From: Takashimella koratensis
Taxonomy: Eukaryota; Basidiomycota; Tremellomycetes; Trichosporonales; Tetragoniomycetaceae
Length of the DNA stretch: 64,000 nucleotides
Direction of reading: 5' to 3'
Assembly (NCBI GenBank): GCA_003116875.1
Contig: BCKT01000001.1
Location: 2,785,486 to 2,849,485, forward strand
Below the pieces are notes generated by a model that saw only the letters and a program-made list of their open reading frames with translations, was not told where the DNA came from and made no database searches. Shown here piece after piece: positions 7,364-58,413 of the stretch. Every line of letters starts with the position of its first letter. The first letter of the stretch is position 1. A program made the position numbers and the translations under genes.

Positions 7364-8651
7364 ATGAAGGACATCACCTCCAACGAGTCTCTTACCATCC
7401 CCGAGGGTGTCACCGTCTCCATCAAGGCCCGCAAGATCACCGTCACCGGTCCTCGCGGTACCCTTGTCAAGAACGTCGGCCACGTCGCGATGGACATCCA
7501 GGTCGTGAGTTGGGACGGGATTAGGGTTGGGACGGGATGGAACGGGAGGATTGGGAAGAGAGGAATGGGGAAGAGAGGATTGGGGGAAGAGAGGGCGGGA
7601 GGATCAGAAAAGGACGGGGACGGAGATGGGACTTGGGATGGGGTCAGGTGATGGAGGCAGGCGCGAGGAAAAAGAGGGATAGGCAAGGGTGGGACACGTT
7701 AAGAAAAGAGGCGAGAGGGAAGCTTTCGGCGGAGACAGGGCATGGCAGCGAAGAAGTAGAGACGAAACCATCGTCAACACCAACTAACACACCCCAGGTC
7801 AAGGGCTCCAAGGGCGAGCAGGTCATCTTCACCGTCTGGCACGGCGCTCGTAAGCACGTTGCGTGCCTCCGAACGATCAAGTCGGCTGTCGAGAACATGA
7901 TCACTGGTGTTACCAAGGTGAGTCGAGGGGTTGAGGTTGAGGGGTGGAGAGGGTCGAGGGTTAGGGGGTCGAGGAGGTCAAAGGGCAAGGGGCTAGACCG
8001 GAGGGCGAGTGGAGATGGGCTAGGGGATTGTATACCGGCGTTGGAGGAAGCAGGCAGAGGGCGCGGTGGAGACGTCGATGCTGGTCGAGAAGTGGGCGTG
8101 GAGCAGACTCGATTGGGGAGAGATTCGAGGTGTCACTTTCACCCTCAACCTTTGCTAACCCCACGCAGGGCTTCCTCTACCGCATGAAGCTCGTCTACGC
8201 GCACTTCCCCATCAACGCCATCCCCTCCGACGACGGCTCTGCCCTCCAGATCCGAAACTTCCGTAAGTGTCATCCTTTTTCTCCATTCTCGCTCCTCTCT
8301 TCTTCTTTTCCCTCGTGCTCCCGCACGCTCCCGCACTCGTGCTGACCCCACTAGTCGGCGAGAAATTCGTCCGTGACTGCCCAATGCTCGACGGTGTCAA
8401 GGTCTCCCTCTCCGAAGTCAAGGACGAGATCGTCATCCAGGGTAACGACATTGAGAAGGTCTCCCAGTCCGCCGCTTCCATCACCGACAAGACCCGTGTC
8501 AAGGAGAAAGATATCCGAAAGTTCCTCGACGGTGTTTAGTGAGCTCGGCAAAGAACTTCCCGATGTCCTTGCACAAAAATTGTACTCTAAACTGATCATT
8601 TTCTCTCTCTACAGCATTTCCAGCCGGGAGCACGTTGTTTCGGAGGAGTAA
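7364..8651 (+). CDS. RPL9: 60S ribosomal protein L9 (uL6)
   Basis: Exons 7364-7504, 7798-7917, 8169-8262, 8355-8538 and 8615-8651 give 191 residues, the same length as yeast Rpl9. Diagnostic stretches are [31 protein letters not shown] with YAHFPIN, and [11 protein letters not shown] with a short acidic end (VVSEE). The protein is a core component of the large ribosomal subunit, near the base of the stalk and the sarcin-ricin region. The start is the ATG before KDITSNESL, which fits the family; an in-frame upstream ATG at 7160 would add a hydrophobic leader not found in uL6 proteins. Introns 1 and 2 (293 and 251 nt) are long for this genome; I found no convincing snoRNA boxes in them. The last intron splits the Tyr codon of DGVY. 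Confidence 0.96.
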
Positions 8652-9509: not shown

Positions 9510-9989
9510 ATGCCCGCCGATACCAACGTCTCGCCCTCCTCTCTCACCCTGCGTGACGTGTGTGAGAATCTACGAAACAACCCGCAAATAGACCTTGGAC
9601 ATCGAACAGACCCGACTTTTCTCGCTTTCATCTGCGATTCTAAACCCCCCGTCCAGCCTGCACATGGAACGTATGATGAAGGGACCATCGACACTTTCGA
9701 AGGGAAGATAGGATACACCATTTTCAGCCGCTCGCTCTCAGGTGAGGAAAGCGATTGGTACTCGTTGGTCAATCTGGGTGAGGGGAAGTTGGAGTGCTCT
9801 TTCGGTGGGAAAATCCCAACAGAAGCAGAATTGTCAAAGGTCTATGATACGTGGGTATCGTCAATGGGCGACAGGTCAGCGTTTGAAAAAATAATTAAGA
9901 ATGAGAACTCGAATTTGGTCATGGCAATCATGGGGTCTAAAGAAATTGTGGGTATCGAGGATGCCAAGGACCGGGGTCACAAGATCTGA
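9510..9989 (+). CDS. KDHL-family protein, copy 1 (divergent, intact)
   Basis: Single exon of 159 residues ending in TGA. I do not recognise a known domain, and there is no signal peptide or membrane segment. It is the most divergent member of the array. The shared plan is a variable N-terminus, a GTYDEGTID block like the G-T-F/Y segment of other copies, a stretch corresponding to their beta-rich core (IGYTIFSRSLSG), then a C-terminal helix-like segment (ELSKVYDTW) where other copies have KDHL....W. Membership rests on order, size and position in the array, not on high identity. It has its own TATA box. Function unknown. Confidence 0.65.
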   Translation: MPADTNVSPSSLTLRDVCENLRNNPQIDLGHRTDPTFLAFICDSKPPVQPAHGTYDEGTIDTFEGKIGYTIFSRSLSGEESDWYSLVNLGEGKLECSFGGKIPTEAELSKVYDTWVSSMGDRSAFEKIIKNENSNLVMAIMGSKEIVGIEDAKDRGHKI

Positions 9990-10721
9990 ACACGTGCTTG
10001 TCCCGGGCCACTCTCTCATTGTTAGACGATGCATTATCTTGACTCACACAAAGAGGTTACGTCGAGGTCGCCGAGCACTCACTAACGAAATACTGTCTGT
10101 TGGTCTCTCCAAGCCCCTTTCATCGCTTTCGAGGATACATCTGAGGTTTGGGGACGTTCAGGTAGCTGGTGTGCTACCTCTCTCGTCCTCCACTTCTGCG
10201 GCTACGTGACCTAGAGGAGAGGTCAGGCCTTCACATGTCGTTTCTCAAAGGATTGACACGGGCGTGGGGGTTAAGCGAAAGAGAGAGACGTGAAGTGACC
10301 TCTTTTGCTCTTTTCATTATCTCCGTGTTGTCAGTTGTGAAGATCAGTGCAGATCTTGGTGCTAAGTGTTTCAAGCAGACTTGGCGAAAGGAGCAGCGGT
10401 CTAGTCTGTACGAATGTTTGTTCAAGCGAACATCCCTGGAGTCGACCGAGGGGAAGTTGTCGAGCTCCAACAGGTGGTATGTCTCTGCTGGCACTGAAAG
10501 GATTGTGAAAACTCCACTCTTCCCCCGAAAGCTTTTAGTGCTAGGACTATTCTAGACGAACAGATCGAGGTGGGCGAGGAGCGAGAGTGGAAGGCCACAG
10601 CTTACTGAATAAAGTTATTCGCCAGTGCTTGCTGTTGCGTTCGCCTACTTTCCCGACATCTTTCACAACTTCTTCACCTACAACACCTTTCCCCAAGCTT
10701 CACCCCCAATACAACATCAGC
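9990..10721. other. Spacer between KDHL copies 1 and 2
   Basis: No gene is supported. It contains a block (10441-10537) that is repeated before copy 3. Confidence 0.55.
10441..10537 (+). repeat. Intergenic block of the KDHL array, unit A
   Basis: Similar by eye to 11766-11857: both share AGCTCCAA, GTCTCTG, CACTGAAAGG, CACTC..CTTCCCC and CTGAAAG/CCGAAAG in the same order. It lies before copy 2 as its partner lies before copy 3, which shows that duplication carried the upstream flank along with the gene. Confidence 0.6.
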
Positions 10722-11329
10722 ATGTCGGCAAAGACCCTGGAACCGCCCGAATATCTCGAGCTGGCGACAAAATTCACTCCGCTATACCTCGCCGCCGATG
10801 AAAGACCACCCGTCCCCGATTCTTCGGATGGACGTCAGGACGAGCCTACAGGGCCGCTGAGCTCCTTGTGGTATATCACGCATCGAACCAGGAGACTCAC
10901 ACTCACCCCTTTCGATTGCAAGCAGGACCACAAAGACCCTCAGAAAGGTTCTTTCAACGGCGTCGAAACGGCCAATTCAAGCCAGACCGTTGGCATCCAA
11001 TTTTCCCTGAGGTGATTCACGCGCCGAAAATCGACTGTACCACCCACGAAGAAGGAGAATTGCCATCGCCCTGCTCGAACGACGGGTCGTGTTGTTGGAC
11101 ACTTCTCTTCTCCAACAAGGTGCACTCGACGATCACCTACGATGCGCCTTCCGGGTCGGTCGTCTACCGCGTCTGCTCGAAAGACCATCTCACCGACTCA
11201 GAGATCCAGAACTACTGGGTCAAAGCCCGTGACAAACTCCCTTCGTCCGCCATCCGTGGGCCGTCCGACCCCACCGAGGCGCCGTTACCCACCACCGGGT
11301 CGTCCACCGCGGCTGACTCGATCGGTTGA
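10722..11329 (+). pseudogene. KDHL-family copy 2, frameshifted
   Basis: The frame opens at 10722 (MSAKTLEPPEYLEL) and runs to FSLR, where it meets a TGA at 11013. The next frame continues without a gap with VIHAPKIDC and on to the family signature (VYRVCSKDHLTDSEIQNYW) and a Ser/Thr-rich tail ending at 11329. Copy 3 reads through the same point as FSVKQIHVPKLEIC in one frame, so a one-base loss near 11010-11012 is the simplest explanation. An intron is unlikely because all intact copies are intronless and homologous residues lie on both sides of the break. A sequencing error is possible. Confidence 0.65.
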
Positions 11330-12061
11330 GTGGTACTCAAACGCAGGAGTGGTACTCGAACGCAGGCGGTGAGGTGTTTTGTACTCTTCCGTACACCGTA
11401 TACCTCCCGCCCCTTCTCCAAGTCTGATCAGTGCTCATTCATTTCGCTTCTTTACTTTCTGACTCGTACTTTCCCACTGTCCTCCTTCTATGTTTCTACT
11501 TATCTGATGCAACGCTTCCGTACCAGTTTCCCTGGCGCCCCAGCAGCCAAAGATGTGCTGCTACCTGGCTGTCCGCGTGCAGTGAAGTGGAGCCACTGAC
11601 GTCAAACCAACCCTTTGACTATCACTGAGTTGCTTCAAACCTTTCAACACAGTGGTAATCATGAATGCTCTTGTCAATCCTTTCTTCCATTGGCAAAAAC
11701 TTGCACCGAGCGCTTCATGGCTACCCAAAGGAGGAGCGGTCACTGCTATGCCAAACTGTTTTGACCTGACAGAGGAGATTGTCCAGCTCCAAGCGTTTTC
11801 TCGTCTCTGTTTGCACTGAAAGGTTCGTCAAACACTCCTCTTCCCCTGAAAGTCCAGGCGTTGACGTTATCTGTGTGGTGGGAAAAAGCTGTGCTAGGCT
11901 TTCCATGCAAACGTCAGGGTGAGGGGACACTTGTAAGCATAGTTTGCAGAGGGATTCACAGTTGGATTTGTTCGTTTCTCACCCTTTCAACTACTCACAC
12001 CCCCATCACCGGAACCGCCATTCACCATTCATTACACAATTTCACCCCAATTCAACCCCAC
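11330..12061. other. Spacer between KDHL copies 2 and 3
   Basis: No gene is supported. The 3' flank of copy 2 contains TTTTGTACTCTTCCGTA (about 11374-11390), which recurs after copy 4. The block 11766-11857 is described separately. Confidence 0.55.
11766..11857 (+). repeat. Intergenic block of the KDHL array, unit B
   Basis: Partner of 10441-10537. A weaker trace (CCAAGCTGTTTTGCTGAGAT near 14274) of the segment just before this block follows copy 4. Confidence 0.6.
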
Positions 12062-12697
12062 ATGAAGGAGCCAAAGACCATCACAAGGGACAAATACGAT
12101 TCCGAGGCGATGCAGATCATGACTCTGCACAGTGCCATCAACTACGACCTTACGGACGAGCCGGTTAGCGAGTCACGGGAGGTCGAAATGATGGTCGCAT
12201 CGTTCAAGGTTAGACACGGACACGGCCACTTTCGGATGACAGAAATCGACTGCTCGTGCTCAAAAGCAGACGCAGACCAGAGTTGGACAGGGGAGTTCAA
12301 GGGGACTACGACGACGGACCCCAAAACTCCCGCCGCAATTCGGTTTTCCGTCAAACAGATTCATGTCCCGAAGCTCGAGATCTGCGTTACCGATGGACCG
12401 GAATACACTTTGGTCGGCTCAAACGGCGTCTACACCAACATCACTTGCCATCCCCCGACGAGAAAGTCATTCCAGCACCGCCTTTTCATCAGCCATCATC
12501 TCAGTCAGGAGAACATCGAATGACTTTGGCGAACGGAACTCGCTGGAAAGCCATTGCCTTTTCCTCCGACGATGCCCAAGGGTGCTTGGCCGTCTACCGA
12601 TGCCCGTTCGTCCGCCCCTCGCCCCCCTTCGTCTGCGGCTGGCGAATCCTCAACCGCTACTGGCGCTCACCCAGCTTCAAAGAACGAGATTGGATGA
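12062..12697 (+). pseudogene. KDHL-family copy 3, premature stop in the conserved C-terminal motif
   Basis: Opens at 12062 (MKEPKTITRDKY) and contains the family core: RFSVKQIHVPKLEIC, GSNGVYTNITC and SHHLSQENIE. A TGA at 12521-12523 follows, at the position where copy 4 has Ser and just before the conserved Leu-Trp. The same frame continues after the stop with LWRTELAGK and a Ser/Thr/Pro tail of 57 codons to a TGA at 12695-12697, ending NEIG much as copy 2 ends DSIG. Truncation to 153 residues would remove the conserved Trp. It could still make a shortened protein, but a recent nonsense mutation is the simpler reading. Confidence 0.65.
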
Positions 12698-13533
12698 AGC
12701 ACACGACTCCAAAGCGCGCCGCAAGATATCCAGTACATTCTCATACATTTTGTACCTCCCGCGCCTTCTTTGAGTTTTCAGCGTCATATTCTCAGTCTCT
12801 CGTATCCGTATGCACGCATTCGGCACCCATGGCCTAAACTGAAGGCTCCACTAAATTCACCAATATGAAATGGTCTGTTGCTTGGCTGCCAGCATGCATG
12901 AAAGGATGAAGACACGACGCTTGACCAGCTCCGCGAGAGAGGCGGCACTGCGTCGCTCCTTTCGTCCCTTTCTTTTCCTATTCCTCCTCTGTGTTAGTCG
13001 GAGCACAACCAACGAAGGTCAAAGTGACAAAGATACATTTCCCGACTCTCTGTACTCGCCTTTCGCCAAATTCAGCACAGCTTTGCTCCTTCCCCTCCGC
13101 CACTTCTCCGACACAAAGAACGTGTCTCCGATCTCGACTCTCAGTCGTTTCCAAGCCAGTTCGCTTCGCTCCTTTCCCTTTCCCCGTGTTACTTGCACCG
13201 CTTCGACTGACGAATGTTGTTTCAGGACTCTCTTGATAAAGGAGTGATGAGTATGACTAAGCGAACATCAGTCGAGTGAGCGAAGCAGCCAAGCTGAGTG
13301 CTTTTGCAATCCCGAAAGGATATGCCGCGCTGTTGGAGAAATGCCGGAATACGAAAGATTCTCTCTGAAAGTCCGTTTATAGCTCCTTTGGGGGCCGCCA
13401 ACAACGTTTCTCCGCCGTTTGGAACGAATCCAACCCCCCTACCAAAACCAAGGCTGCTGATGTTATATTCTGAACATCCTCTGATTCAGATACAGTCTTA
13501 CTTCAACACATTCATTCTGACTTCAGCACCGAG
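12698..13533. other. Spacer between KDHL copies 3 and 4
   Basis: No gene is supported. The open frames here have no family motif. Confidence 0.5.
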
Positions 13534-14004
13534 ATGTCGACAGATCAAGCACAGCACAATCTGCAAGCCGAGCTTGTTACTCACCTTCTGAACCTCCAAA
13601 AGGTCACCATCGGTACCGCGAGGGCACCGAACGATTCAAAGGCAACTTACTCAAAAGACAACATTCCCGAGTGCAAAATGCTGCCTTTCAGGAGTTCTGC
13701 ATTGGAGAACGCTGAACTCGATGACTCCACGATTATCAATGTGCAGCTCTCTGTCACGCATCGACACATTCCCTTGTTCCACCGTACATCCGACGGCAAA
13801 ACCAGCGATGTCGACGGCACAGGCGGTGTTTACTCGAACATCACGTTCACCATCCCCCCTCAACCGGCATTGTCGCTGAAACAGCAGACTCTGCGTTCCA
13901 CAGCCTTTACGAAGAACCACCTCACAGACGAGGACATCGAATCGCTTTGGCTGAAGGTTCGCTCCAATGTCTCCTTGGGGACGAGGACTGGGGGAGGAGG
14001 GTAA
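13534..14004 (+). CDS. KDHL-family protein, copy 4 (intact)
   Basis: Single exon, 156 residues. Core features: IINVQLSVTHRHIPLF, then DGTGGVYSNITFTI, then FTKNHLTDEDIESLWLKVRS, followed by a short Gly-rich end. No signal peptide, membrane segment or known domain is visible. The arrangement of alternating hydrophobic strands followed by a C-terminal helix suggests a small beta-rich cytosolic protein; this is inference. It is one of five copies without a visible lesion. Confidence 0.75.
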   Translation: MSTDQAQHNLQAELVTHLLNLQKVTIGTARAPNDSKATYSKDNIPECKMLPFRSSALENAELDDSTIINVQLSVTHRHIPLFHRTSDGKTSDVDGTGGVYSNITFTIPPQPALSLKQQTLRSTAFTKNHLTDEDIESLWLKVRSNVSLGTRTGGGG

Positions 14005-15150
14005 GCGAAGCTCGGAGGGACGCGACGAAGGCTTTTGTACTCTTCCGAAGGCTTTTGTACTCTTCCGTAGTACATTCAGTTGCATGCTTGTCAAGCCTTT
14101 CCCCCTCTTTCATCAGTCCGCTTTACTTGCTTTTTGTTCCCATTTTGTTCAATACCAGTAAAATGAAGTTTTCTCCGAGGAAGACCTTGTGACCGAAGTG
14201 TGAAGGTGCATGGTCTTCGAAGCAAACACATTGGCCGGTAATCATCAGGAGAGCTAAATCCCTCACTCCTCTGCCAAGCTGTTTTGCTGAGATCCATTTT
14301 CGCGTTTCCACAGGATAGAAGATAAAGATCTACCCAGAAGAGAGGATGGAATTTCAGGCCCGTTTCTGCCTTCTTGACGACCCGGTTCATTCCTTGACAT
14401 CTCATTCCTCTCAAAGCTCTTTGCAAGAGTCATCTCGTGGTCGTTTACGACTGAATCAGCTCTTGGGTCAACTTCGCGTATCATGAACAGACATGGGGTG
14501 CTCAAAAAACCTTTGTGCTCAATACATAGATTTGAAGTGATTCAAATGTGGAGCATGAGAGCTCAAAAACCGTCCCTCTTCACTTTCATTCGTGCAGGTG
14601 ATCTTTTTGCATGCAGATATTTTGAGCCAACTACTGTACATCTGGTATCATTGGTGATTAGCTCTTTTGGTTGTAGAGAGAGAGGGAAGGTGTTTGTCTG
14701 ACGATTCAGACGGCACTATAGTGAGCTGTCAATTTCTCTCATCTTCCGTTTCTACTACAGTAACTGCACAAAAATGGGTATCGCCTAAACTTTCGTCCAG
14801 TTTGTTGCTCGACACCCTCGACTTGCCCTCCACCAGCTGTTCAACTTATCCTTTTCACCCAAAAACGAAAGGAAAGATCAAAGGTTTTCATTTCGGCGTC
14901 AGCTGCAAAAGAGGCATGAACGCACACCACAAGCGCCAGAGTCACTAAACTTTTGTTGACGGAGACTGAATCACACCCACCAACGCCCGCTCCCTTTTTT
15001 TGCCTCTCCGGAGTATGGATCCTACCTTTGTCCTTGGATCGGACAGGTTGTTGTATCTCAGTACAGCTGCAAGATACTAGGATTTCACGGCTTAAGATAA
15101 CCTGCCCCTCTTATTGAGCTTTACTTGATGAGCTCTCCAACGCTACGACC
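14005..15150. other. Spacer between KDHL copies 4 and 5
   Basis: Longest spacer of the array. It holds a 20-bp direct repeat near its start and a trace of the array's intergenic block near 14274. A frame near 14875-14948 (KIKGFHFGVSC) faintly resembles the family core and may be a relic, but it is too short to call. Confidence 0.45.
14027..14066 (+). repeat. 20-bp tandem duplication in the 3' flank of copy 4
   Basis: Two perfect copies of GAAGGCTTTTGTACTCTTCC. A single copy of its core occurs in the 3' flank of copy 2, so this element belongs to the ancestral duplicated unit, possibly as an RNA 3'-end signal. Confidence 0.9.
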
Positions 15151-15691
15151 ATGGACTACGGAACATTTTCGACCCAAGAGCCAGCGCCACCGAGCGACGC
15201 GATCATTCCCCCCAAAACAGCAGACCTCGACCTCTCACCTTTGTGGACCTTCAGTCCTAACCTGACCTACCTCGCCTTCAATTGCCCTCTATGATGTTGG
15301 CGCCGCCAGTGTGATCGAGACGGGGCCTTTCGGTTGTGATTGCTACCGTGTGAACGAGGGCTCCTTCTACGCAAAGCTGGCTCCTCAATCCGAGCCGACC
15401 AAGATCAGCTTCAAAGTCACCTGCGAACATGCTCAGAGTTTCAACATTGTTTCACTCGGCGGGCTGCTCAAAAGCCGGGTTCCAGGATCCGGCGGCGTCT
15501 ACTCCACGATCGAATTCTCCTCTGCCCAAGGTGATTCAACCTGTACATGTGTCGTATATTCGAAAGATCATCTCTCTCAGAAGTCGGTCGAAAAGTGCTG
15601 ACCATTCGTGCGCCACAAGCTCTGCCAACAACAGCCTTCAGATATTGATGCGTCATTGGAGGTTCAAGGGTCTGAGGATATGTTCACGTGA
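15151..15691 (+). pseudogene. KDHL-family copy 5, frameshift plus nonsense
   Basis: The frame from the ATG at 15151 (MDYGTFSTQEP) ends early at FNCPL. From about 15276 another frame carries the conserved protein: IALYDVGAASV, KISFKVTCEHA, IVSLGGLLKS, GSGGVYSTIEFSS and YSKDHLSQKSVEKC. One extra base near 15276 restores phase relative to copy 7 (LLSMALLNSGWASL). At 15599-15601 the codon after EKC is TGA where copy 8 has Trp (KKCW). The frame then runs on as PFVRHKL to 15691. Two independent lesions make this a decayed copy. The copia element is inserted about 340 bp downstream. Confidence 0.7.
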
Positions 15692-16030
15692 GAGTACCCT
15701 CCAGCGGTACGCGCACTCCTCGAGTACAGTGAGTGACATAATGAAATTTCTCCAGAATCAGCCATCATTGACTTCCAAAGCTTTAGGCTGGTGTGGGGGT
15801 GGAGATCTTGGACGCTAAAGGGGATACAGAGCTCGAGGGAGGCCGAAAAAGCTGTACTCATGGAGACAGATAGTATGGAGACAGGTGTTGAAAGTCTGCC
15901 GCCGAGTTACAAAGGAATGCTTTGTCAGCGGTATCAAAAGAGACAGTTGACGCTTTCGGACTACGGGAGCTATCTGACGCTGGTTGTCTCCTCCAGATTT
16001 CTACAGAGAGAGAATTGAGCCCGAAGAGGG
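15692..16030. other. 3' flank of KDHL copy 5 up to the copia insertion
   Basis: No gene is supported. Its continuation on the other side of the retrotransposon starts at 21282. Confidence 0.5.
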
Positions 16031-16035
16031 TGTAA
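16031..16035. repeat. Target site duplication, left copy (TGTAA)
   Basis: TGTAA directly before the 5' LTR is identical to 21277-21281 directly after the 3' LTR, as expected for copia integrases, which make 5-bp duplications. Confidence 0.9.
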
Positions 16036-16344
16036 TGTCAGGTATCGAACCCGAGAACTGCGGAGTGGATCTGAAGCGGTCCGAGCGCTCCCGAAGTACC
16101 TGGGATGCCGAGAGGGGACTGCGCAGGCGGTGGCGCAGACGGTGGCGCAGGCCGAGACCATGGAGAACAATAAGGCCACCGGTAGGGGCGATGCAGCGCT
16201 GCGGCGCACGAGCCTGCGAGCGGCTGCGGCCGCGGAGAAGGACGGGGATGCATAACGACGCGCAAGCGGTCGAGGCCGATCTGGTAGAGTTAAATAGCGG
16301 CCAGTAGCGTCGAGGATGAATCCCTAACCCGTTGAAACCTAACA
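16036..16344 (+). repeat. 5' LTR of the copia element
   Basis: 309 bp, starting TGTCAGGTATCGAACCC and ending GAAACCTAACA. At 16256 it has C in a CpG where the 3' LTR has T. The sequence directly after it (16345 onward, GATTCGCAGTCAGAG) is where a primer-binding site is expected; its complement contains CTGCGAA, which resembles a tRNA anticodon loop, as in copia elements primed by internal tRNA fragments. The tRNA is not identified. Confidence 0.93.
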
Positions 16345-16425
16345 GATTCGCAGTCAGAGTTAGCAAGGACTCTAGACACACCCCCACCCACTGTTTGCCA
16401 CCCATTTGCCACCCAGACACCCACC

Positions 16426-19400
16426 ATGTCTACCAACACCACCCGTCGTACCGTCACCCTCTTGACCGACAACCAACTCCGCTGGGAGCGCGAGATCCTA
16501 GCCGAGCTGCGAGCCAAGGGATGCGCCGGCTTCCTCAAGGGACGAGACCCCGAGCCGATGTCAAGCAGCGACATCGTCAATGGAAAGGTCAAGAGGAGCA
16601 AGAGGATCGACTTGGAGATGCCGTTATCGATCGAGGCCGGTACGGACGCGAAGCAGAAGGAGTGGAAGGACTGGGTCGTTCGACAGGACAAAGCCATGGG
16701 TATCCTCTCATCGTCGGTCGAGGCCGATGTTGCGCGCGCGTTGGTCAAGCTCGACACCCCACTCGAGATGTGGGACTTCCTGATGGTCATNGTCGAACGA
16801 CAGTCAGCCTCTGAGGTGAACAGGGTACAGGAGCTACTCACAGTCACCCAGCTCCACGACGACACGCCCAAGGCCATGCAGAAACACCTGCAGGTCTACT
16901 CCGACCTGCTCGACCGCGCTGAGCACTGCAAGATCATCAACACCGAGGGTGCGAAGATCGAGAAGTTCGTCGCTAGCCTCTATGCCCAGTTCCCCGTGTT
17001 CACAACGCAGATTGTGGCACGCAATGTCGACAATTGGTTCGAGTTGCGCGCGCTGTGGAACGACGAAGTTGAGCGACGAAAGGTAGCAAAGGCATCGAGG
17101 TCGAACGCCAAGGCTATGGCCCTCGCTACCTTCCCACAGCAGACGGGACGAGGCGGTCGAGGTGGAGGGCGAGGCGGCCGAGGCCGCGGAGCCAATCGAA
17201 ACGGAGGCAAGGGTGGGATGGAGACTAGGGCTTGTTACAACTGCGGTAAGACAGGCCACCTCAAGGCAAACTGTCCTGCGGGACAGCGAGGGACCGCCCC
17301 AAGGGGCGGAGCGAAGGCCGGTGGCAACGGCGATAAAGAGGACGATAGCGACGGCTTTGGACTAGCATCAGTCGGAGTTGCTGGGGTTGTCACGGGGGCC
17401 ACCAATGGGTTCGAGGACATGTGGATCGTCAACTCCGGCGCAACACACCACATGTCCGGGTTTCGAGAGTGCATGGGCGATGCTATTGCCCCCACCGCTC
17501 GATTCACCACCACCGGCGCTGGGGGACGAGTCCTTCAGGCGCTAGGCGTGGGCAAGGCGACGCTACTCGACGCGGACGGGCAATCGGTAGCGGTGAACGG
17601 GGTCAAGTACATCCCCGGCCTCGGATTCAACCTCCTCTCGTACTCGGTGATGATCGACAAAGGTTGGGACGTCCAACTCCGAAGCGGCAATGGCTGGATC
17701 TCCCGTGGGGAGACCAGGATCGATCTCGAGCGTCAAGGGCGTCATTGGGTAGTGAAAGACCATAGTACCCATGCGCTGGCGTTGCCGGTTGTCGAATGCA
17801 CCCGTTCCCTCTACNATGAACATGTCCGGCTGGGCCATGTAGGGCGAACGAGGTTGCTAGAGCTAGCCAGGAAGGGCATGCTTGCAATGGGACATGATGA
17901 GGCGGTGGCGGATCGCTTCAAAACGCTCGACTGCAAGACGTGTGCAAAAATGAAGTCGACACGGTCGCCAATCGTGTCCGATGGTCCACGAGCAACTAAG
18001 GACGGCGAAATGATTCATGTCGACCTAGCGGGACCATTCTCCCCTTCGATAGGGGGAGAGGATCACCTAGTTATCATGCTCGACGACTACTCGAGGGCAT
18101 GCTGGGTGGAGCCGACCAGGGGGAGATTGTCGGCTCCCAAGGTCGTGCAAAGGTTCGTTGCCCTTGTGGAGAGGCAACTGGGAGGCGCAGTCCGGTTCAT
18201 TCGATCGGATAACGCGCCAGAACTAGTCTCGAAGGACTTCGAAGACTGGCTGAGCGAGAAGGGTATCGTGCACCAACGAACGACCCTGCACACGCCGCAG
18301 TTAAACGGCGTAGCAGAACGCTTTGTCGGAACGATCAAAGCGATGGTAAGATCGATGCTTGCGAGCTCGAGTCTGCCACACTCGTACTGGGGCTACGCAG
18401 CAAGGTACGCAGCGGTGGTCTGGATGTGCGTACACGAGGGACGAGACGGACGCGAACCGTGGTCCAAGGTCACCGGGAGAAACAACGACCTCTCGAGCGT
18501 CTTACCCTTCGGCACGAGGGTAACGGTACACGTCCAAGACGCGCAGCGGCGCGGTAACCGGTTCGACATCCCGCGGGGACAAGCCGGTAGAGTCATAGGA
18601 CAGCGCCTAGGTTCGAGTGGATGGATGATACTCCTTGACGAAGGAGGCATCATACACTCCAGGGATGCGCGCCCCTCAGCGGAGGAGCCGCTACCCGCCG
18701 CCCCAACCCCAAGAGACGGGGTTGACGGGGCGGCGAATACCGCCGGGAGACGGCGGGCAATGCTTCATGACGCCGAACCGGAGTTCAGCGCCGAAGGAAG
18801 CGAGGACGACAATCAGGGAAACGTCGAAGCGCCACCCGAGGAAGAGAGGGAAATGACGCCTCGACAGACACGTCGACCCAGCAGCCCACTCTCCGAGCCA
18901 CCGGCCGAGGCCGGGGCAGCCGAAGGAGATGAGATTGAACTCGAAGCGCCAACAACCCACGTAAAGGGATGGCGATACGTGCCCTCTGAGGAGGCACCAC
19001 AACCGAGCAACCCGTCGGCTGGTGAGACAGGTGGATCGAGGATTGATGACACCGGCGTACAACGATCAACACGACTCGACGAGATACGCGACCAAGGCCG
19101 AGCGCTGGCGGTGTACGAGCATGACAACCCGAAGACCGTTGCTGAGGCAATGGGTAGTCCCTACGCTGCACAATGGACGTCAGCAATGAAGAAAGAGCTA
19201 GACAAGCTCAGGGAGATGGGGACATGGGACGAGGTGGACTCGATCCCGAACGGGCGACGCACAATTGGAGCCAAATGGGTCTTCAAGATCAAGCGTGATG
19301 CAGACGGACGAGCAACGAAGTTCAAGGCTTGACTGGTGGCGAAAGGATATTCGCAGCTCAAAGGGGTCGACTATAACGAAACATTCGCCCCGGTCGCACG

Positions 19401-20688
19401 GATGCAGTCGCTGAGGTTACTGCTTGCGCTGGCGTCAACACTGGACCTCGAGGTCCAACAGGCCAACGTTGCGAGCGCATATCTAAACGGTACACTTGAA
19501 GAAGAGATCTTCATGGGATATCCGGAGATGATGCGACAGAAAGGATCAGCTCTGAAGCTGAAGAAAAGCCTCTACGGACTGAAGCAGTCTGGTAGAGCAT
19601 GGTGGGAGGAACTTACCACCAAACTGAAACAGCAGGGCTTCACCAGCCTTGAGAGCAAGTGGGGCCTGCACTTCCAAGCAAAGACAGACAATAACGCTGC
19701 GGTGCTAGTCTTCGTGTACGTCGACGACCTAGTGGTAGCCTCGAGGAGCGCCAAGACGATCGACAAGGTGTTTGCTGGCCTAGCAAAACACTGGGAAATA
19801 GAGAGGCTAGGGGATGTCAGCACAATCCTAGGGATCAAGGTGCAAAGGGACAGGGGGAGTAGAGTAACTCACCTATCGCAACCGTCATACATCGACCAGA
19901 TCATCGAGCGATTCCCCGAGGCGACCAAGTGGAAGCGCCCACCAAGTTCGCCACTAGCCAAAGACCACGAGAGACGTGGGGAACAGGACAAGGCGGCCAA
20001 TATATCGAGGTATAAAGCGATCGTCGGCAGTTTACTCTGGATCGCGTCATCAACTCGACCAGACGTTGCGTTTGCCGCGGGGGTTCTAGGCCGAGCATCA
20101 GCAAACCCCACTAGCCATGACTGGACGCTTGCAATGCGCACNGTGGCTTACCTGAAGGGGACGCAAGGAGAAAGGCTGAGGCTGGGCGGCAAGGAGAGGA
20201 CACCGCTCGAGGTATGGACAGATGCCGACCTAGGAGGCAAACTAGCGGGGCGACGATCAACCACCGGCTGGATAACGTTCGTCTGCGGCTCACCCGTGTT
20301 GTGGGCCTCAAAGAGACAGAGCACAGTTGCTCAGTCCACCGCCGAATCGGAATACATTGCGATGTCAGAGGCGATCCGAGAGGTGGTTTGGATGCGAGGG
20401 GTATTGAAGGAACTGAAGTCGCACTGGGCAATTAAGTCAGCCACCAGAGTTCACTGTGATAACCAGGCGGCAATCGCAATTGCCAAGGGACCTACCTCAC
20501 ACCAGAGACGCAAGCACATCGATATCAAGTATCACTACTTGAGACTGATGGTTGAGAAAGGTGTGGTTGACGTCGACTACGAACGAAGCAAGGAGAATCG
20601 AGCGGATCTCCTCACCAAGTCAGTCTCAGGACCCGAGACGACACGAAAGCAACTGCAACTTGGCCTGGTAGGCAAACCAGAAGCGTAG
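16426..20688 (+). pseudogene. copia gag-pol polyprotein, inactivated
   Basis: One frame of 1420 codons plus the terminal stop, interrupted by TGA at 19330-19332 in the conserved FKA-LVAKGYSQ segment at the start of reverse transcriptase, where the family has Arg. Visible parts: a CCHC knuckle (CYNCGKTGHLKANC) near 17233; the protease site WIVNSGATHH with Asn336 where the family has the catalytic Asp; the integrase zinc region (HVRLGH...CKTC) and D-D-E core (HVDLAGP, RSDNAPE, NGVAERF); reverse transcriptase with Asn1014 in the ANVASAYLNG segment where the first catalytic Asp is expected, and an intact YVDD at 19717-19728; RNase H (TDADLGG, STAESEYIA, CDNQAA). All three changes are G:C to A:T at former CpG sites. 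N bases occur at 16791, 17815 and 20142. Confidence 0.9.
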
Positions 20689-20957
20689 ATTCGATATCCG
20701 AGGAGATCAAGAGGTGTTGCAGGGACATTGGCTGAGCTGGAGGTCGTCAAAGTCATCAGAGACGGGCTGAGGACATAGAAGGAAAAGAGGAAAGGTGTCA
20801 ATGACACGGTTCGCTACCCCCGGCGTTACCGGTGTTACCGACAGCCAACCAAATGTGGCGATTTCAATCCTCACTTACATTTCGAGCTTCCATCCAGTTC
20901 AAGGCAGGTACGACTATACATAGTACGTGCTAGAGTGGGTTGAGGACCTCTCTCGAC

Positions 20958-20966
20958 GAGGGGNAG
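20958..20966 (+). promoter_or_regulatory. Polypurine tract of the copia element
   Basis: The purine run GAGGGGNAG lies directly before the 3' LTR, the position used to prime plus-strand DNA synthesis. It contains one ambiguous base. Confidence 0.6.
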
Positions 20967-21276
20967 TGTCAGGTATCGAACCCGAGAACTGCGGAGTGGA
21001 TCTGAAGCGGTCCGAGCGCTCCCGAAGTACCTGGGATGCCGAGAGGGGACTGCGCAGGCGGTGGCGCAGACGGTGGCGCAGGCCGAGACCATGGAGAACA
21101 ATAAGGCCACCGGTAGGGGNGATGCAGCGCTGCGGCGCACGAGCCTGCGAGCGGCTGCGGCCGCGGAGAAGGACGGGGATGCATAATGACGCGCAAGCGG
21201 TCGAGGCCGATCTGGTAGAGTTAAATAGCGGCCAGTAGCGTCGAGAGATGAATCCCTAACCCGTTGAAACCTAACA
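20967..21276 (+). repeat. 3' LTR of the copia element
   Basis: 310 bp, nearly identical to 16036-16344. Differences: N at 21120, T at 21187 (C in the 5' LTR, CpG to TpG), and one extra base near 21246 (GAGAGATG against GAGGATG). Confidence 0.93.
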
Positions 21277-21281
21277 TGTAA
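21277..21281. repeat. Target site duplication, right copy (TGTAA)
   Basis: Matches 16031-16035; it marks the right edge of the insertion. Confidence 0.9.
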
Positions 21282-21446
21282 GGAGACGAATGGTCACATT
21301 TGATGCCGACTCGCGGCAAAGGATTGCTTTGCTACCGGATCTGAGAGTTGGACGACGATCTTTTCTTTTAGCAACTGTACTCCCGAGACATTTTTGTTCG
21401 CACGCTTGGCTGCTCTTGGAGCGCCCCAGAGTATATGACCTCGAAG

Positions 21447-21454
21447 TATAAGAG
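21447..21454 (+). promoter_or_regulatory. TATA box of KDHL copy 6
   Basis: TATAAGAG lies 86 bp before the ATG at 21533, at a spacing like that of copy 1. Confidence 0.5.
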
Positions 21455-21532
21455 TGCGGTTCTCACTGTTTGAGCAAAGACCCCATCATTTTGCTCGCCC
21501 CATAAGCAAAGTGCTCTGACCCTTTTAACAGC

Positions 21533-22030
21533 ATGGCTCAACTAGAAGCAGACATCAGGCAGTGTATAGAGAGGTATAGCAAGATTGACAGGGACTTTAC
21601 CAAAGGCAACAACTCAACCTTTTTGATGGCATACAAATTCATTGAAGAGGCAGCGGTCATTGGTCTCACCAGAGTGGGGGGAGGTAGCCACAACTCAACA
21701 CCAGCGAAAGTTTGCTCCGGATATTCGCTCCCTGAGAAGTCGTTCCGTGGCGCGATCAATGATGGGTCAGAGCAGGTCGATATCGACTTTGACATTGAAC
21801 ATAAACACGTCTTTACACTTGAGGTCTGCTCAGAGTCCAGCATAAGCCACATTGTAACCGGTACAGGTGGTCTATACTCCACGATCACGTACACATTTTC
21901 CAATGGCTCGGCAGGGGGTATTCGCTCCGTAGAAGGTCGAACTTTTTCACGTGATCATCTAACTTTGGACCAAGTAATTCAGACCTGGTCGAACGTCCGT
22001 TGGAAGCTAAATCCTTCTGCAAACGATTGA
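21533..22030 (+). CDS. KDHL-family protein, copy 6 (intact)
   Basis: Single exon, 165 residues. Core: VDIDFDIEHKHVFTLEVC, then GTGGLYSTITYTF, then TFSRDHLTLDQVIQTWSNVR and WKLNPSAND at the end. The N-terminus is longer and more helical-looking than in other copies (IRQCIERYSKID). It is the first gene after the copia insertion and keeps its own TATA box, so the insertion need not have silenced it. No known domain, signal peptide or membrane segment. Function unknown. Confidence 0.75.
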   Translation: MAQLEADIRQCIERYSKIDRDFTKGNNSTFLMAYKFIEEAAVIGLTRVGGGSHNSTPAKVCSGYSLPEKSFRGAINDGSEQVDIDFDIEHKHVFTLEVCSESSISHIVTGTGGLYSTITYTFSNGSAGGIRSVEGRTFSRDHLTLDQVIQTWSNVRWKLNPSAND

Positions 22031-22626
22031 GAGGACGATTCACCTTGAAGCTTTATCTGAGAGCTGTTCATCGTTGCTTAGCTAGTCTACTCGGCATTAC
22101 AATCCAGGTAGCTTAGCGTTCCTAGTCTCATAATGATGCTCTGAATGCAACGACGTTTCTCCTGTATTTTGCTGATTTATTGCACTTGGCGGTCGGGAAG
22201 AGCGGATTGCCTATGCCCCATTGAGAGGCAAGGATGAGTGAGGAGCTGGGACAGTGAAGCTCTTCTGAGTTTAAACTCGTCCGCCTGTGGGGTGGGGAAA
22301 GGGTGAAAAGCTGCGCAAAGTTTTCTCGGCCCCTGTCCTGTGTCCCCTTTGTCTCCAGGCAAGAGAGGAAGGGTAGACAGCTCTCGGCGATGGGACCGAA
22401 AAACAGTCCACTGAGTGTGTACTTATCGCAGATATGCTGGACTCGTGTCGGGCAACGAAAGTTGTGTACTCCCTTGTCGCTCACCTCCGAGGTTTCATAT
22501 TATTCTTTCCTTTATCTTTGTCTGCGCCCATCCTACTGGCAAGCAGTAAAAACGTCTGGTGCAAACTCAACGCCGCTCAAACTGTCTCACCTCTCACTCT
22601 CTTTGACTTTGGAAGAACGTACCACA
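22031..22626. other. Spacer between KDHL copies 6 and 7
   Basis: No gene is supported. An open frame runs from about 22303 in phase with copy 7, but its residues show no family pattern, so it is treated as leader and promoter. Confidence 0.5.
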
Positions 22627-23133
22627 ATGGCTGATATCACAATCGTTAGCGAAGCGAAAGACACTCTGTCTGCCATTTCGAATAGGCAGCGGAGCGTGGA
22701 CGTCAACACAACCCCTTTGTTGAGCGACAACCAGTCACTTTTCCAACTATTATCCATGGCACTTCTCAACTCGGGATGGGCAAGTCTCGAGGCAAAGCCA
22801 GCTCCAGAGTGCTCTGGCTGCCCGACCAGTGAAGGTACTATCGCTCACCAGCTGAGCGGGTCTTCAGAGCCTACTGAATTCGACTTCAAGATAACATGCG
22901 AACATGCACCCAAAGTCGACATCGTTTCATTGGGCGGGTGGCTGCGTAGCCCAATTCCAGGCTCGGGAGGTGTGACCTTCAAGATCGATTTCAAATCATC
23001 TACCCGCGGGGCAACATGCACTGTCTATTCGGACGCTCATCCGACTCCACAGGAGATCGAAGGGTATTTGGCGTCCGTAGAGCACAGACTTCGCCCGCAT
23101 CCACCTAACGTGGAGGACGTGGATGAGGTATAA
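22627..23133 (+). CDS. KDHL-family protein, copy 7 (intact, variant motif)
   Basis: Single exon, 168 residues from the ATG at 22627 (MADITIVSEAKDT). Core: FDFKITCEHAPKVDIVSLGG, then PGSGGVTFKIDF and CTVYSDAHPTPQEIEGYL, followed by VEHRLRPH and an acidic end (VEDVDEV). It is closest to copy 5 in the CEHA and VSLGG blocks, but the KDHL tetrad reads DAHP and the conserved Trp is Leu. The upstream in-frame extension to 22303 has no ATG-linked family similarity. Function unknown. Confidence 0.75.
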   Translation: MADITIVSEAKDTLSAISNRQRSVDVNTTPLLSDNQSLFQLLSMALLNSGWASLEAKPAPECSGCPTSEGTIAHQLSGSSEPTEFDFKITCEHAPKVDIVSLGGWLRSPIPGSGGVTFKIDFKSSTRGATCTVYSDAHPTPQEIEGYLASVEHRLRPHPPNVEDVDEV

Positions 23134-23687
23134 CATGGATCGTCCACACCTCATGAGACTCATTTACACTGGGTTATCCGTAGGGATGTGAACAAATGCA
23201 TTTACTCGCAGCAACTCGTAACAGCCAGGTAGGATACTACCAAAGGGTAGAGGGGTAGACATCCCATGAAGCAGAATCGGTCAGTGATGGATAGAGGAGC
23301 GAGTCATTACACTGATTGCTAAGACAATGATCGCTGGGCATTTGCCCCGTTTGAGTGATCAAAAGATAGCAAGGAGAAAGGGTCGTTGAGGAGGGGAGGT
23401 TGTGTCGAGGAAGGGGCAAGATCACTTCGTCTGCTTGGAGCTAATGCTGAACTGTCGGTGGTGTTGCTCTTTTGTGGACTGACATACTCATTCGTCGAGG
23501 GAGCACGCCTTGACTTGTGTCCTGCTTTTGAAGTCCCTCCCTTATGCCCTTTGTCTTGACTCGACGGGGTGTCGTGGAAGGCATGATGAAGTGAACATCA
23601 TGCAATAGCTGTCTTTTAGTTCAACGTTTTCTTCAACAGCGCTTCTATCCCCATCCTGCATTTATCCTCTCCGTCTACAAACCCAAG
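23134..23687. other. Spacer between KDHL copies 7 and 8
   Basis: No gene is supported; short frames only. Confidence 0.5.
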
Positions 23688-24239
23688 ATGAGCACGGATC
23701 TCCAGGCATCCATCTCAGTTACCGAGCGAGTTCGAGGCGTCCACTACCACTCGACGTCCACGCGAACGACTGCACACAATTTCCAATTGGTCCAATGTCT
23801 CGCATGGTTGAGTGCAGGAAAAGCAACACTCAATGAAGGGCGGTCACCACCTCCTTGTTCCGGCCGTCCGGTGAACGCCGGCACTTTCACCGAACATGTT
23901 TTTGAAGACAAAGATCAGACGAAAATCAGCTTCACTTTGACTTGCGACGAGCACATGCCCCTTCTCACCTTCGTCTCGAATGACTTTTCGATCACCCCAT
24001 TCGACGTCTACGGCTCTGGAGGGATTTACTCGACAATTGTGTTCTCTTGGTCCGATGGGGAGTTCACCTGCAAAGCATTCACGGAAGAGCACTTTGCAAG
24101 CGTCGAGTCGGTCAAGAAGTGTTGGGCGGATGTACGCTGGAGAATTCCTCCACCGTCGCCAAATGTCGAGGAGCCGCAGCCGAGCTCGGTCAAAGACGAG
24201 ATCTCCGGCGACGACGAGCATTTCAGCGACGAGGGATAG
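23688..24239 (+). CDS. KDHL-family protein, copy 8 (intact)
   Basis: Single exon, 183 residues, the longest copy. Core: AGTFTEHVFEDKDQTKISF, then LTCDEHMPLLTFVS, GSGGIYSTIVFSW, CKAFTEEHFASVESVKKCW and ADVRWRIPPP, then an acidic tail (KDEISGDDEHFSDEG). The same frame stays open past the TAG for about 43 codons with a similar acidic composition, so the tail may once have been longer. It is the last copy of the array. No known domain. Function unknown. Confidence 0.75.
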   Translation: MSTDLQASISVTERVRGVHYHSTSTRTTAHNFQLVQCLAWLSAGKATLNEGRSPPPCSGRPVNAGTFTEHVFEDKDQTKISFTLTCDEHMPLLTFVSNDFSITPFDVYGSGGIYSTIVFSWSDGEFTCKAFTEEHFASVESVKKCWADVRWRIPPPSPNVEEPQPSSVKDEISGDDEHFSDEG

Positions 24240-53025: not shown

Positions 53026-55174
53026 ATGACCACGGTCGCGAAGAACAACATGACTTATGGTGTGTATGACAATGAGGGGAATGAGGTAGAGATGTGGCGC
53101 TGACGACAACCCCCCCCCCCCCCCCTCCTCCTCCTCCCCTAGTCCGGCTCGGAGAGTCCGGTCTCAAGGTGTCCAAACTTATCTTGTGAGTCACTCACGG
53201 ACGGTGTCACCTTCCTTCCTTCTTTCCTACGAACGTGTCTACCTTCCTTTTGCCACTTCCTTCATTGCCCTTCCCCTCTCCTTCATTTCGTTCCCCCTCC
53301 CACTTCGTCTCCTCGCTCTCCCTTCCTCTTTGACCTTGTCCATAGCTAACACCACCCAGGGGCTGCATGTGTACGTCCCATCCCAGCTTCTTTAGCTTCT
53401 CTCCACTCACCGGCCCAAGCTGATGACGTCTGTAGCCTACGGCACACCCGACTGGGCAGCTTGGGTCCTTGACGAGAAGACCAGTATTGAGCACATCAAG
53501 TTCGCCTATGAGCGCGGTATCAACACTTTCGAGTAAGTCGAGTTGAACTGTCGTCCTTCTCTCTTCTGCAGGAGATAGATGATCAAGACTCTCAGCACCG
53601 CCAACACGTGAGTCACTGGCTGTGCGAGGTCCTGCATAACAGCCGTTGACACCCCACAGGTACTCGGCAGGCGAAAGCGAGGTTGTCCTCGGTAAAGCCC
53701 TCAAGGAAATTGGCGTGAGTCTTGGACAGGTCCACAGATCTCACTCAATTGCCAGATGGTCAATCAGTGCAGCTGACATCCCCAGTGCCCGCGCGAGAGC
53801 GTCGTCGTTCTTACCAAGGTGAGCTAGCAGTTCCTTTTCAATGAGCTCGGCTGACGAAATCAGGTCTATAACCCCGTCGATAGGAGCCTTAAGGGTATGC
53901 ACGCTGTCAACAAATCTGGTCTCAGCAGGAAGGTATGTCCCTTCTAAATCTCTTCCCCAACCACCACCTTCCACCCAATCACTTATGGATGTCTATTTCG
54001 TCATCTTGGTGCAACCGCTCACACGCCACAGCACATCTTCGACAGCATCCAGGCAAGCTTGAAGAGGCTCCAACTCGACTACGTCGATGTCCTCCAGTGT
54101 CACCGATTCGACTACGACACCCCCATTGCGGAGACTGTGAGCTGGCTTTTCTGTACCGAACAGACGGGATTCAGCTGACACGGGATCAGATGCAAGCGCT
54201 GCACGATGTCGTCCAGATGGGATGGGTCCGGTACATTGGCATGTCCAGGTGAGTCATCTCCTTCGTATCGAGATACCGCGTGGGCGAGCAGTTTGTCTGA
54301 CGTATTTTCTCAGCTGCTGGGCGTACCAGTTCCAGGCGATGCAGAGTAAGTTCAGCTGAATTCCACTCTTAAGCGAAATAAGCTGACACACGGTCAGACT
54401 ACGCGATCAACAACAAGCTTACCCCCTTCATCTCGATGCAAAACTTTTACAACGCCACGTACCGTGAAGAAGAACGTGAGATGATCCCGACTGTCAAAGT
54501 GGGTACAGCTGGTGGGGTTTTCATGAACGGAGCTGACCCTTGTGTACAGATGTTCGGCGCCGGGATGATCCCGTGGTCTCCCTTAAACCGAGGGTTCCTC
54601 TCTAGGCCTTGGAAGGCTGAAGAGACTGTCCGTGTCAAGTCTGACAAGTGAGTGAAGGGCAACCTATGTCTCCATTGCCTTCCACTCTACATTTCACTCG
54701 TCCTCTCGTTTAGCTGTCCGCTTCGCACCGGCCTCGATCGTGGAAAGGTAGCTAACTCAACGCAGCGGATACAAGAGCCGTAACACCCACTTGCCCGACG
54801 AATCGCGTCAAGCTATCAACGAGCGAGTCGAAGAACTGGCCAAGAAACGGGGTGTCCCTATGGCTCAGATCGCACTCGCTTGGGTGCTTAGCAAGGACTA
54901 TGTGACAGCTCCGATCATTGGATCGACAAAAACGGACAATATCGTGGAGCTGATCGGTAAGTCAAAGCCGGGATTGAGGGGTTTGTTGGTTGCGTGGTGT
55001 GAAGATCGTTGGGATAAGCTGACGTCAATGTAATAGGCGCACTCGACTTGGAACTTACCAAGGAGGAAATCAAGTACCTCGAGGAACCGTACACCCCTCG
55101 TGACATCGTCAGTTCTTTTCCGGATTTGGTCACGGTGTTTAGCTGACAAACGAACACAGGTTGGGTTCACGTAA
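53026..55174 (+). CDS. Aldo/keto reductase, copy 1
   Basis: Sixteen exons: 53026-53059, 53143-53185, 53360-53370, 53436-53532, 53596-53607, 53660-53714, 53786-53818, 53864-53932, 54032-54136, 54190-54248, 54314-54345, 54398-54498, 54550-54647, 54766-54956, 55037-55107, 55160-55174; 341 residues. NADPH-dependent oxidoreductase with a TIM-barrel fold. Visible family features: YVRLGESGLKVSKLILGCMS, NTFDTANTYSAGESE, VVLTK, QCHRFDYDTP, EEREMIPTVK, MIPWSPLNRGF and APIIGSTK. The catalytic tetrad is Asp62, Tyr67, Lys95 and His142. Exons 3 and 5 have 11 and 12 nt. Intron 12 (51 nt) is in frame without a stop; intron 15 has an unusual GTCAGT donor. Intron 1 carries a run of about 16 C. It resembles aryl-alcohol/YajO-type reductases; the substrate is unknown. 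Confidence 0.92.
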
Positions 55175-56569: not shown

Positions 56570-58413
56570 ATGTCAGACTCCAAGATGACCTATGGTGAGC
56601 GGACGAGCAACCAACTCGCCGTAACTAACCCCATCCAGTCCGACTCGGCAAGTCTGGGCTCAAGGTCTCCCGCATCATTCTGTGAGTCTTGATCACGAAG
56701 GGGTGACTCAGGCAGATATCCCCACCTCCTAGCTGACCGTTTTTTAGCGGGTGCTTGTGTATGTGCCCGTCTTGAACCACTCCGCTCATCTCCCAGCCTA
56801 CGGGGACCCCACCGTGACGTCGTGGAAGCTCGATGAGAAGACCGGTATCGAGCATATCAAGTACGCTTACGAGAACGGCATAAATACCTTTGAGTGAGTA
56901 GCGGAGGCTACCTTGGCTCATCTGAGTGATGCTGACATGTCCAGTACGGCAGACACGTAAGCGAGGATCCACCAGTCATCCAGCACAACAGCGGATTGAA
57001 TGGCTGACCTTCCGGATGTTCAGCTACTCTGCCGGCAAGTCCGAGATCATCCTAGGAAAGGCGCTCAAGGAGATCAACGTGAGACAAAGAGCCCTTGAAG
57101 CATTGAGCCCTTTACTCACCACCATGGTAGTGCCCACGTGAAAGCGTTGTGATTCTCACCAAGGTAAGCGGTTTGGTCGAGGATGTCTCTCTGGTAGGGC
57201 TCCGCGCTGATCCCTAGGTCTTCTTTACCATCGGTGGCCCCGAGCCGCCTTGTGAGGAGCTCGAACGGCCTCCCTGGGTCAACGCTTTTGGTCTCAGTCG
57301 CAAGGTGCGAGCTGCGGTCTTCTCCAGTAGCCCGCCTCAAGCTTGTAGCTCACCTTTTGCCCTACCCAGCACATCTTCGACTCGGTCCAAGCCAGCCTCA
57401 AGCGACTCCAGCTCGATTACATCGATGTTCTTCAGTGCCATAGGTAAGTCATATCAGCAGTCCAACTTCCACTGTGAACCCGATAGCTGACAATATGCAG
57501 GTTCGATTACGACACTCCCATCGAGGAGACAGTGGGTTCCCAAGCTCGAATCATGTCCTGACATGGTCAGATGCAAGCGCTCCACGATGTTGTCAAGCTT
57601 GGATGGGTCCGATACATTGGCATGTCCAGGTAGGCGTCTGCTTCTCATCCCTATGAGCAAAGCTGACGTACACGCAAGCTGCTGGGCGTATCAATTCCAG
57701 GCTATGCAGAGTGTGTTTCCCGTCATTTGGTTTGTCGCTTCCGCTGACGTTAGGATTAGACTACGCTATCTCGCATGGCTTGACGCCCTTCATCTCGATG
57801 CAAAACTTTCATAACGCGGCGTACCGAGAGGAAGAGCGCGAGATGGTTCCCACTCTCAAGGTAGGCGACGTGATGGGTGTATACTTTGCTGACGGCCCAT
57901 ATCAGATGTTCGGGGTAGGAATGATCCCTTGGTCGCCTCTGTGTCGCGGTTTCCTCGCCCGACCGTGGACCGCTGCCGAGACTGAGCGCGTCAAGTCTGA
58001 CCCGTGAGCTTAAAGCGTAGTCCGAGCTCACACTGACAACGATCCGCAGAGGTTACAAAAGTCGCAACCTTCATAGTCCAGAGGATTCACGCAAACAAAT
58101 CAACGAACGCGTTTCCGAGATCGCAAAGAAACGTGGGATAACCATGGCCCAAGTTGCTCTCGCTTGGTCCCTCGCCAACGATTTCATCACCGCGCCAATC
58201 GTTGGCACCAGCAGCTTGCAAAACATGAAGGAGCTGATTGGTAGGTAGAACGACGTGCTCAACATCATGTGCGGGAGCTGATTTGTTCCAGCTGGGGCAA
58301 GTGTGGTTCTCACTGAGGAGGAGAAGAAGTATCTTGACGAGCCGTACACTCCGCTGCCTATCGTGAGTGACCGTCTTGGTTCCTACTGACCTGCGAAGTC
58401 CGGTCACTCCTAG
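56570..58413 (+). CDS. Aldo/keto reductase, copy 2
   Basis: Seventeen exons: 56570-56594, 56639-56681, 56748-56758, 56797-56893, 56945-56956, 57024-57078, 57131-57163, 57218-57304, 57370-57443, 57501-57531, 57571-57629, 57679-57710, 57760-57860, 57906-58003, 58050-58240, 58292-58362, 58399-58413; 344 residues. It is the tandem paralogue of the gene at 53026: same intron positions and phases, including the 11-nt and 12-nt micro-exons, plus one extra intron inside QCHRFDYDTP. Tetrad Asp59, Tyr64, Lys92, His145. Its exon 8 encodes a longer loop (FFTIGGPEPPCEELERPPW) than the YNPVDRSLKG loop of copy 1, so substrate preference may differ. Two acceptors are AAG (exons 12 and 17). Substrate unknown. 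Confidence 0.92.

What the first reader, a model, noticed from the sequence alone, without database searches (positions are those of the whole stretch)
9510..24239. Tandem array of eight copies of an unrecognised small-protein family (KDHL family)
Eight same-strand, intronless genes of about 155-185 codons share a plan: variable N-terminus, a strand-rich core with a C-E-H-like segment, G-S/T-G-G-V/I-Y-S-T/N-I, then KDHL.......W.(x)VR. The rest of the genome here is intron-dense, so intronless tandem genes stand out. Divergence is high while the motif order is kept, which suggests fast evolution after duplication. I know of no named fungal family with this signature. Possible roles (self/non-self or stress-related) are speculation.
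Basis: partly seen in the sequence, partly recalled or inferred. Interest (0 to 1): 0.82.

Follow-up and report, generated by a model that had tools for sequence, protein, structure and literature searches.

The report
Tandem family of small orphan proteins
A yeast-like fungus carries a row of seven related small genes, four whole and three damaged, for a protein family that matched no named family in the libraries searched; it looks like an ordinary local gene expansion whose job is still unknown.

The parts
10722..11329 (+). copy c2, frame-broken: N-terminal piece ATG 10722 to TGA 11013-11015, C-terminal piece in another frame to TGA 11327-11329
   Evidence: C-terminal piece 34.5 bits, 0 of 2,000 shuffles; N-terminal piece 4.1 bits, 0 of 2,000; frames read. 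One small indel would look like this, so an assembly error is not excluded.
12062..12523 (+). copy c3, 153 codons, stops at TGA where relatives read on into LW..VR; likely truncated
   Evidence: 40.8 bits, 0 of 2,000 shuffles; stop codon; the stretch after the stop scores -2.8 bits against the profile
13534..14004 (+). copy c4, intact, 156 codons
   Evidence: 60.4 bits, 0 of 2,000 shuffles
15152..15601 (+). copy c5, broken: an ATG at 15152 in one frame, homologous stretch 15281-15598 in another, then TGA 15599-15601
   Evidence: 83.5 bits for 15281-15598, 0 of 2,000 shuffles; 42% identical to c7; frames
21533..22030 (+). copy c6, intact, 165 codons
   Evidence: 76.9 bits, 0 of 2,000 shuffles; model pLDDT 78.2, pTM 0.73
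22627..23133 (+). copy c7, intact, 168 codons from the ATG that aligns with its relatives (an upstream in-frame ATG lies at 22390); motifs eroded (GGVTFKI, DAHP, no W)
   Evidence: 73.6 bits, 0 of 2,000 shuffles
23688..24239 (+). copy c8, intact, 183 codons, clearest motif set
   Evidence: 88.8 bits, 0 of 2,000 shuffles; model pLDDT 76.1, pTM 0.61, core blocks near 90
16036..21276 (+). copia-type LTR retrotransposon inserted between c5 and c6; LTRs 16036-16344 and 20967-21276; target duplication TGTAA at 16031-16035 and 21277-21281
   Evidence: LTRs 99% alike, TG..CA ends and TSD; 'copia-type' is my reading of the ORFs (recalled order of domains), no family scan was run on it
   Evidence: 1,347 of 2,000 shuffles score as well

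Best explanation
Seven neighbouring genes descend by local duplication from one small gene. Each encodes, or once encoded, a soluble intracellular protein of about 155-185 residues with one domain: two N-terminal helices, six strands and a C-terminal helix. The family evolves by birth and death: copies diverge, break (three of seven here) and take in a retrotransposon, while the core motif is kept. SHOWN: homology of the seven, tandem order, coding constraint in the past, breakage, no membrane helix by hydropathy, absence from the libraries searched. PREDICTED: the topology. INFERRED: that the intact copies are binding modules whose variable N-terminal helices and loops choose different partners while the conserved GSGGxYSTI strand, the C/H/H residues and the DHL..W..VR helix hold the domain together, so that several diverged copies are kept because variety pays.
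For: Leave-one-out profile tests, pairwise tests, split-family hhalign control E 5.9e-16. Third codon position most divergent in 15 of 15 pairs. Identity by region: N-terminal helices 16%, GSGG-strand 51%, strands 3-4 31%, C-terminal helix 30%. Same topology in models of c8 and c6. Largest 19-residue hydropathy mean 1.06 in c6, lower in c3, c4, c7, c8; largest 9-residue mean in the first 38 residues 1.30. Duplicated flanks: 62 nt at 73% upstream of c2 and c3, 37 nt at 76% downstream of c2 and c4. Own-genome searches with c8, c7, c6, c4 and c5 found only the array, apart from one hit at E 0.064.
Against: No expression, strain or interaction data. Low identity alone does not show diversifying selection; weak constraint fits too, and three of seven copies are broken. 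Pairs are too divergent for a useful dN/dS. c7 has lost parts of the motif although its frame is open. Fold searches gave no relative from which to borrow a function.
Confidence: 0.4

Rival explanations
1. A fading relic: an old lineage-specific family that no longer matters much, kept for a while by chance, with copies breaking one after another.
For: Three of seven copies broken or truncated, c7 eroded, a retrotransposon with 99% alike LTRs in the array, low identity.
Against: Four open frames of 156-183 codons persist, beyond 0 of 500 shuffles for five ORFs, and third codon positions are still the most divergent.
Confidence: 0.25
2. A small enzyme or metal-binding protein: the invariant Cys57, His89 and His135 (c8 numbering) form a catalytic or zinc site.
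For: Six columns are invariant in c3-c8, and three of them are C/H, which make up 6.1% of residues (binomial P 0.004, computed after the fact). c2 keeps the Cys and the DHL His in its profile alignment; the middle His by eye.
Against: The predicted strand order does not show that the three residues meet; no coordinates were at hand to measure it. No match to a metallo- or hydrolase family.
Confidence: 0.2
3. A hidden distant member of a known fold family, for example a helix-grip (START/Bet v1-like) lipid-binding domain or another antiparallel sheet with a C-terminal helix, too diverged to be seen.
Confidence: 0.25
4. Intragenomic conflict or self/non-self proteins.
For: Tandem, divergent, lineage-restricted, partly broken, beside further small orphan genes in tandem.
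Against: No partner gene, no membrane helix as in wtf-type drivers (recalled), no Pfam match to a known allorecognition domain. No strain data.
Confidence: 0.1

Closest known systems
Tandem, lineage-restricted multigene families evolving by birth and death (general kind)
   Same: Local same-strand duplicates, high divergence, broken copies, no relatives found outside
   Different: This family has its own motif set and predicted domain; copy-number variation among strains is untested
Small secreted effector clusters of fungi (recalled)
   Same: Short orphan genes in tandem
   Different: No hydrophobic start in c3, c4, c6, c7, c8
Helix-grip (START/Bet v1-like) domains
   Same: Predicted order of helices and strands is similar
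   Different: First strand missing, short last helix, only a noise-level structural match

Membership tests
Birth-and-death tandem gene family | Homologous copies next to each other | tested here: met
   Seven plus-strand copies
Birth-and-death tandem gene family | Divergence instead of homogenisation | tested here: met
   20-42% identity in 15 pairs of c3-c8
Birth-and-death tandem gene family | Broken copies among intact ones | tested here: met
   c2, c3, c5 of seven; assembly error not excluded for c2
Birth-and-death tandem gene family | Copy number varies among strains or species | not testable with these tools
   No relative of this genome is held; own genome only
KDHL family, membership of c1 (9510-9989) | Sequence similarity above shuffles | tested here: not met
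   1,347 of 2,000 shuffles as good; 7 of 7 pairs not distinguishable
Any Pfam-A or NCBIfam family | Score above the curated cut-off | tested here: not met
   c1, c3, c4, c6, c7, c8 scanned; best weak hits for c3 BioW 13.8 of 25 bits and PRK09837 15 of 598 bits, for c8 DUF6984 12.6 of 24.6 bits. The pieces of c2 and c5 were not scanned.
Small secreted effector | N-terminal signal peptide | tested here: not met
   Hydropathy only: largest 9-residue mean in the first 38 residues 1.30; no dedicated predictor was available
Helix-grip (START/Bet v1-like) fold | Seven-stranded sheet wrapped round a long C-terminal helix | tested here: inconclusive
wtf-type meiotic drivers | Several membrane helices | tested here: not met
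   Largest 19-residue hydropathy mean 1.06; the defining feature is recalled
Anti-phage defence or phage protein families | Match to PADLOC or PHROGs profiles | tested here: not met
   0 families at E<=1 for c4, c6, c7, c8 (4 of 7 copies)

The most novel reading that the evidence does not exclude
The copies are a new protein domain, two helices-six strands-one helix with a conserved Cys-His-His set, used by one tremellomycete lineage as a fast-changing set of intracellular recognition or conflict proteins, with neighbouring unrelated orphan families doing the same kind of work at the same chromosome region.
Probability: 0.1. Interest if true: 0.75.

Novelty: new member of a known kind. Interest (0 to 1): 0.36.

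Why it matters
If the four intact genes are expressed and selected, this is a compact natural series of diverged paralogues of an unnamed domain, useful for finding out what a lineage-restricted gene family does and for testing whether its predicted topology is new. As it stands, local expansions of orphan genes are common in fungi (general knowledge), and the function is open.

Tried and rejected

An adjacent 90 kb was used as a rough control: no profile hit at E<=0.1, and by eye its local duplicates are ordinary genes, including one three-copy membrane-protein set. It is not a genome-wide baseline.

Full report
WHAT WAS CHECKED. The window is G000:C1:2785486-2849485 of a 25.1-Mb assembly in 24 contigs. 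Its RPL9 (7364-8651, five exons read by hand) is closest to Cryptotrichosporon argae (84%) and then to Cryptococcus, Kwoniella, Saitozyma and Vanrija among the best 120 of 4,855 hits. So the organism is a tremellomycete, with no very close relative visible in the protein collection.

THE ARRAY. c3, c4, c5, c6, c7, c8 and the C-terminal piece of c2 scored 34.5 to 88.8 bits, with 0 of 2,000 shuffles as good. The N-terminal piece of c2 scored 4.1 bits, also 0 of 2,000 but close to the best shuffle (3.5). c1 scored -2.2 bits, and 1,347 of 2,000 shuffles did as well. Pairwise scores agree: 18 of 21 pairs among the seven beat 300 of 300 shuffles, three pairs with c3 are weaker (1, 5 and 30 of 300), and c1 is not distinguishable in 7 of 7 pairs. 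hhalign of c1 against the family gives E 0.36, while two halves of the family find each other at 5.9e-16. The array therefore has seven members, not eight. A profile built from the seven found those seven and nothing else above threshold in C1:2775500-2887013 (next E 0.23); the seven match by construction, so this shows only the lack of others.

CODING. In 15 of 15 pairs of c3-c8 the third codon position differs most (overall 0.575, 0.504 and 0.674 for positions 1, 2 and 3). Five plus-strand ORFs of at least 150 codons occur where 500 shuffles gave at most 3. Four copies are intact: c4, c6, c7, c8. c2 changes frame just before its first stop (11013-11015), c3 ends at TGA 12521-12523 where relatives continue with LW..VR, and c5 changes frame and stops at 15599-15601. 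One-base assembly errors could explain c2.

THE INSERTION. Between c5 and c6 lies an LTR retrotransposon, 16036-21276, with TG..CA ends, LTRs 99% alike, and a TGTAA target duplication on both sides. Its LTR has at least 40 matches in the genome (40 of 65 candidates scored). It splits an array that otherwise repeats about every 1.0-1.6 kb.

RELATIVES. Pfam and NCBIfam gave no family at a curated cut-off for c1, c3, c4, c6, c7 and c8. PHROGs and PADLOC gave none at E<=1 for c4, c6, c7 and c8. PDB sequences gave nothing at E<=10. The large protein collection gave nothing at E<=10 for c8 (16 candidates) or a seven-row alignment (1,389 candidates). That search needs shared five-residue words and uses at most 100 of them, so relatives at 25-30% identity could be missed. 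The RPL9 control shows that Tremellomycetes are held, but not this lineage. In its own genome, searches with c8, c7, c6, c4 and c5 (five of seven copies) found only array members, except one C15 hit at E 0.064.

CONSERVED RESIDUES. In six aligned copies (c3-c8) six columns are invariant: Cys57, His89, Gly109, Gly112, Ile117 and His135 in c8 numbering. Three of six being Cys or His is unlikely at their 6.1% share (P 0.004, post hoc). c2 keeps the Cys and the DHL His in its profile alignment. Conservation is highest in the GSGG strand (51%) and lowest in the N-terminal helices and one loop (16%). Hydropathy shows no membrane helix and no signal-like start.

HOW IT MOST LIKELY WORKS. Shown: one gene duplicated locally, copies diverged under protein-level constraint, some broke. 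Predicted: one small soluble domain. Inferred: intact copies act as intracellular binding modules with variable ends and a fixed core. The relic reading, a metal or catalytic site, a hidden known fold and a conflict role remain open, with the weights given under rivals.

NEIGHBOURHOOD. More small orphan genes in tandem lie nearby: 58781-59257, 60152-60754, 61473-62072 and 62882-63493 on the minus strand. They form two pairs (28% and 37.5% identity) whose link to each other is weak (hhalign E 0.0073, probability 5%). Right of the window, 64449-64871 and 66019-66723 are another pair (34%). None of these six reaches a Pfam cut-off, and none is related to the array by profile comparison. The adjacent 90 kb on the left shows ordinary duplicates by eye. 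Whether such clusters are typical of this genome was not established.

VERDICT. A real, previously unplaced tandem family, smaller and more damaged than first described; a new member of a known kind (lineage-restricted tandem family), with an unsolved function.

Noticed in passing
window 58781-63493 (minus strand): Four small uninterrupted orphan ORFs in tandem, two pairs at 28% and 37.5% identity with a weak link between the pairs; no Pfam family at its cut-off.
   Followed up: partly
L027 535-957 and 2105-2809 (window scale 64449-64871 and 66019-66723, minus strand, just right of the window): Another pair of small orphan ORFs, 34% identical over 123 residues, no Pfam match.
   Followed up: partly
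left of the window, window scale -8151 to -4723 (L031, minus strand): Several short ORF pieces with 31-50% mutual identity, apparently repeated exons of another local gene set.
   Followed up: no
   Followed up: partly
window 16036-21276 and G000:C1:805551-810795: LTR retrotransposon with 99% alike LTRs and a second copy with 96% alike LTRs on the same contig.
   Followed up: partly
window 54382-54648 and 57657-58004: Two plus-strand ORF pieces 72% identical, read by eye as aldo-keto reductase-like exons (recalled).
   Followed up: no
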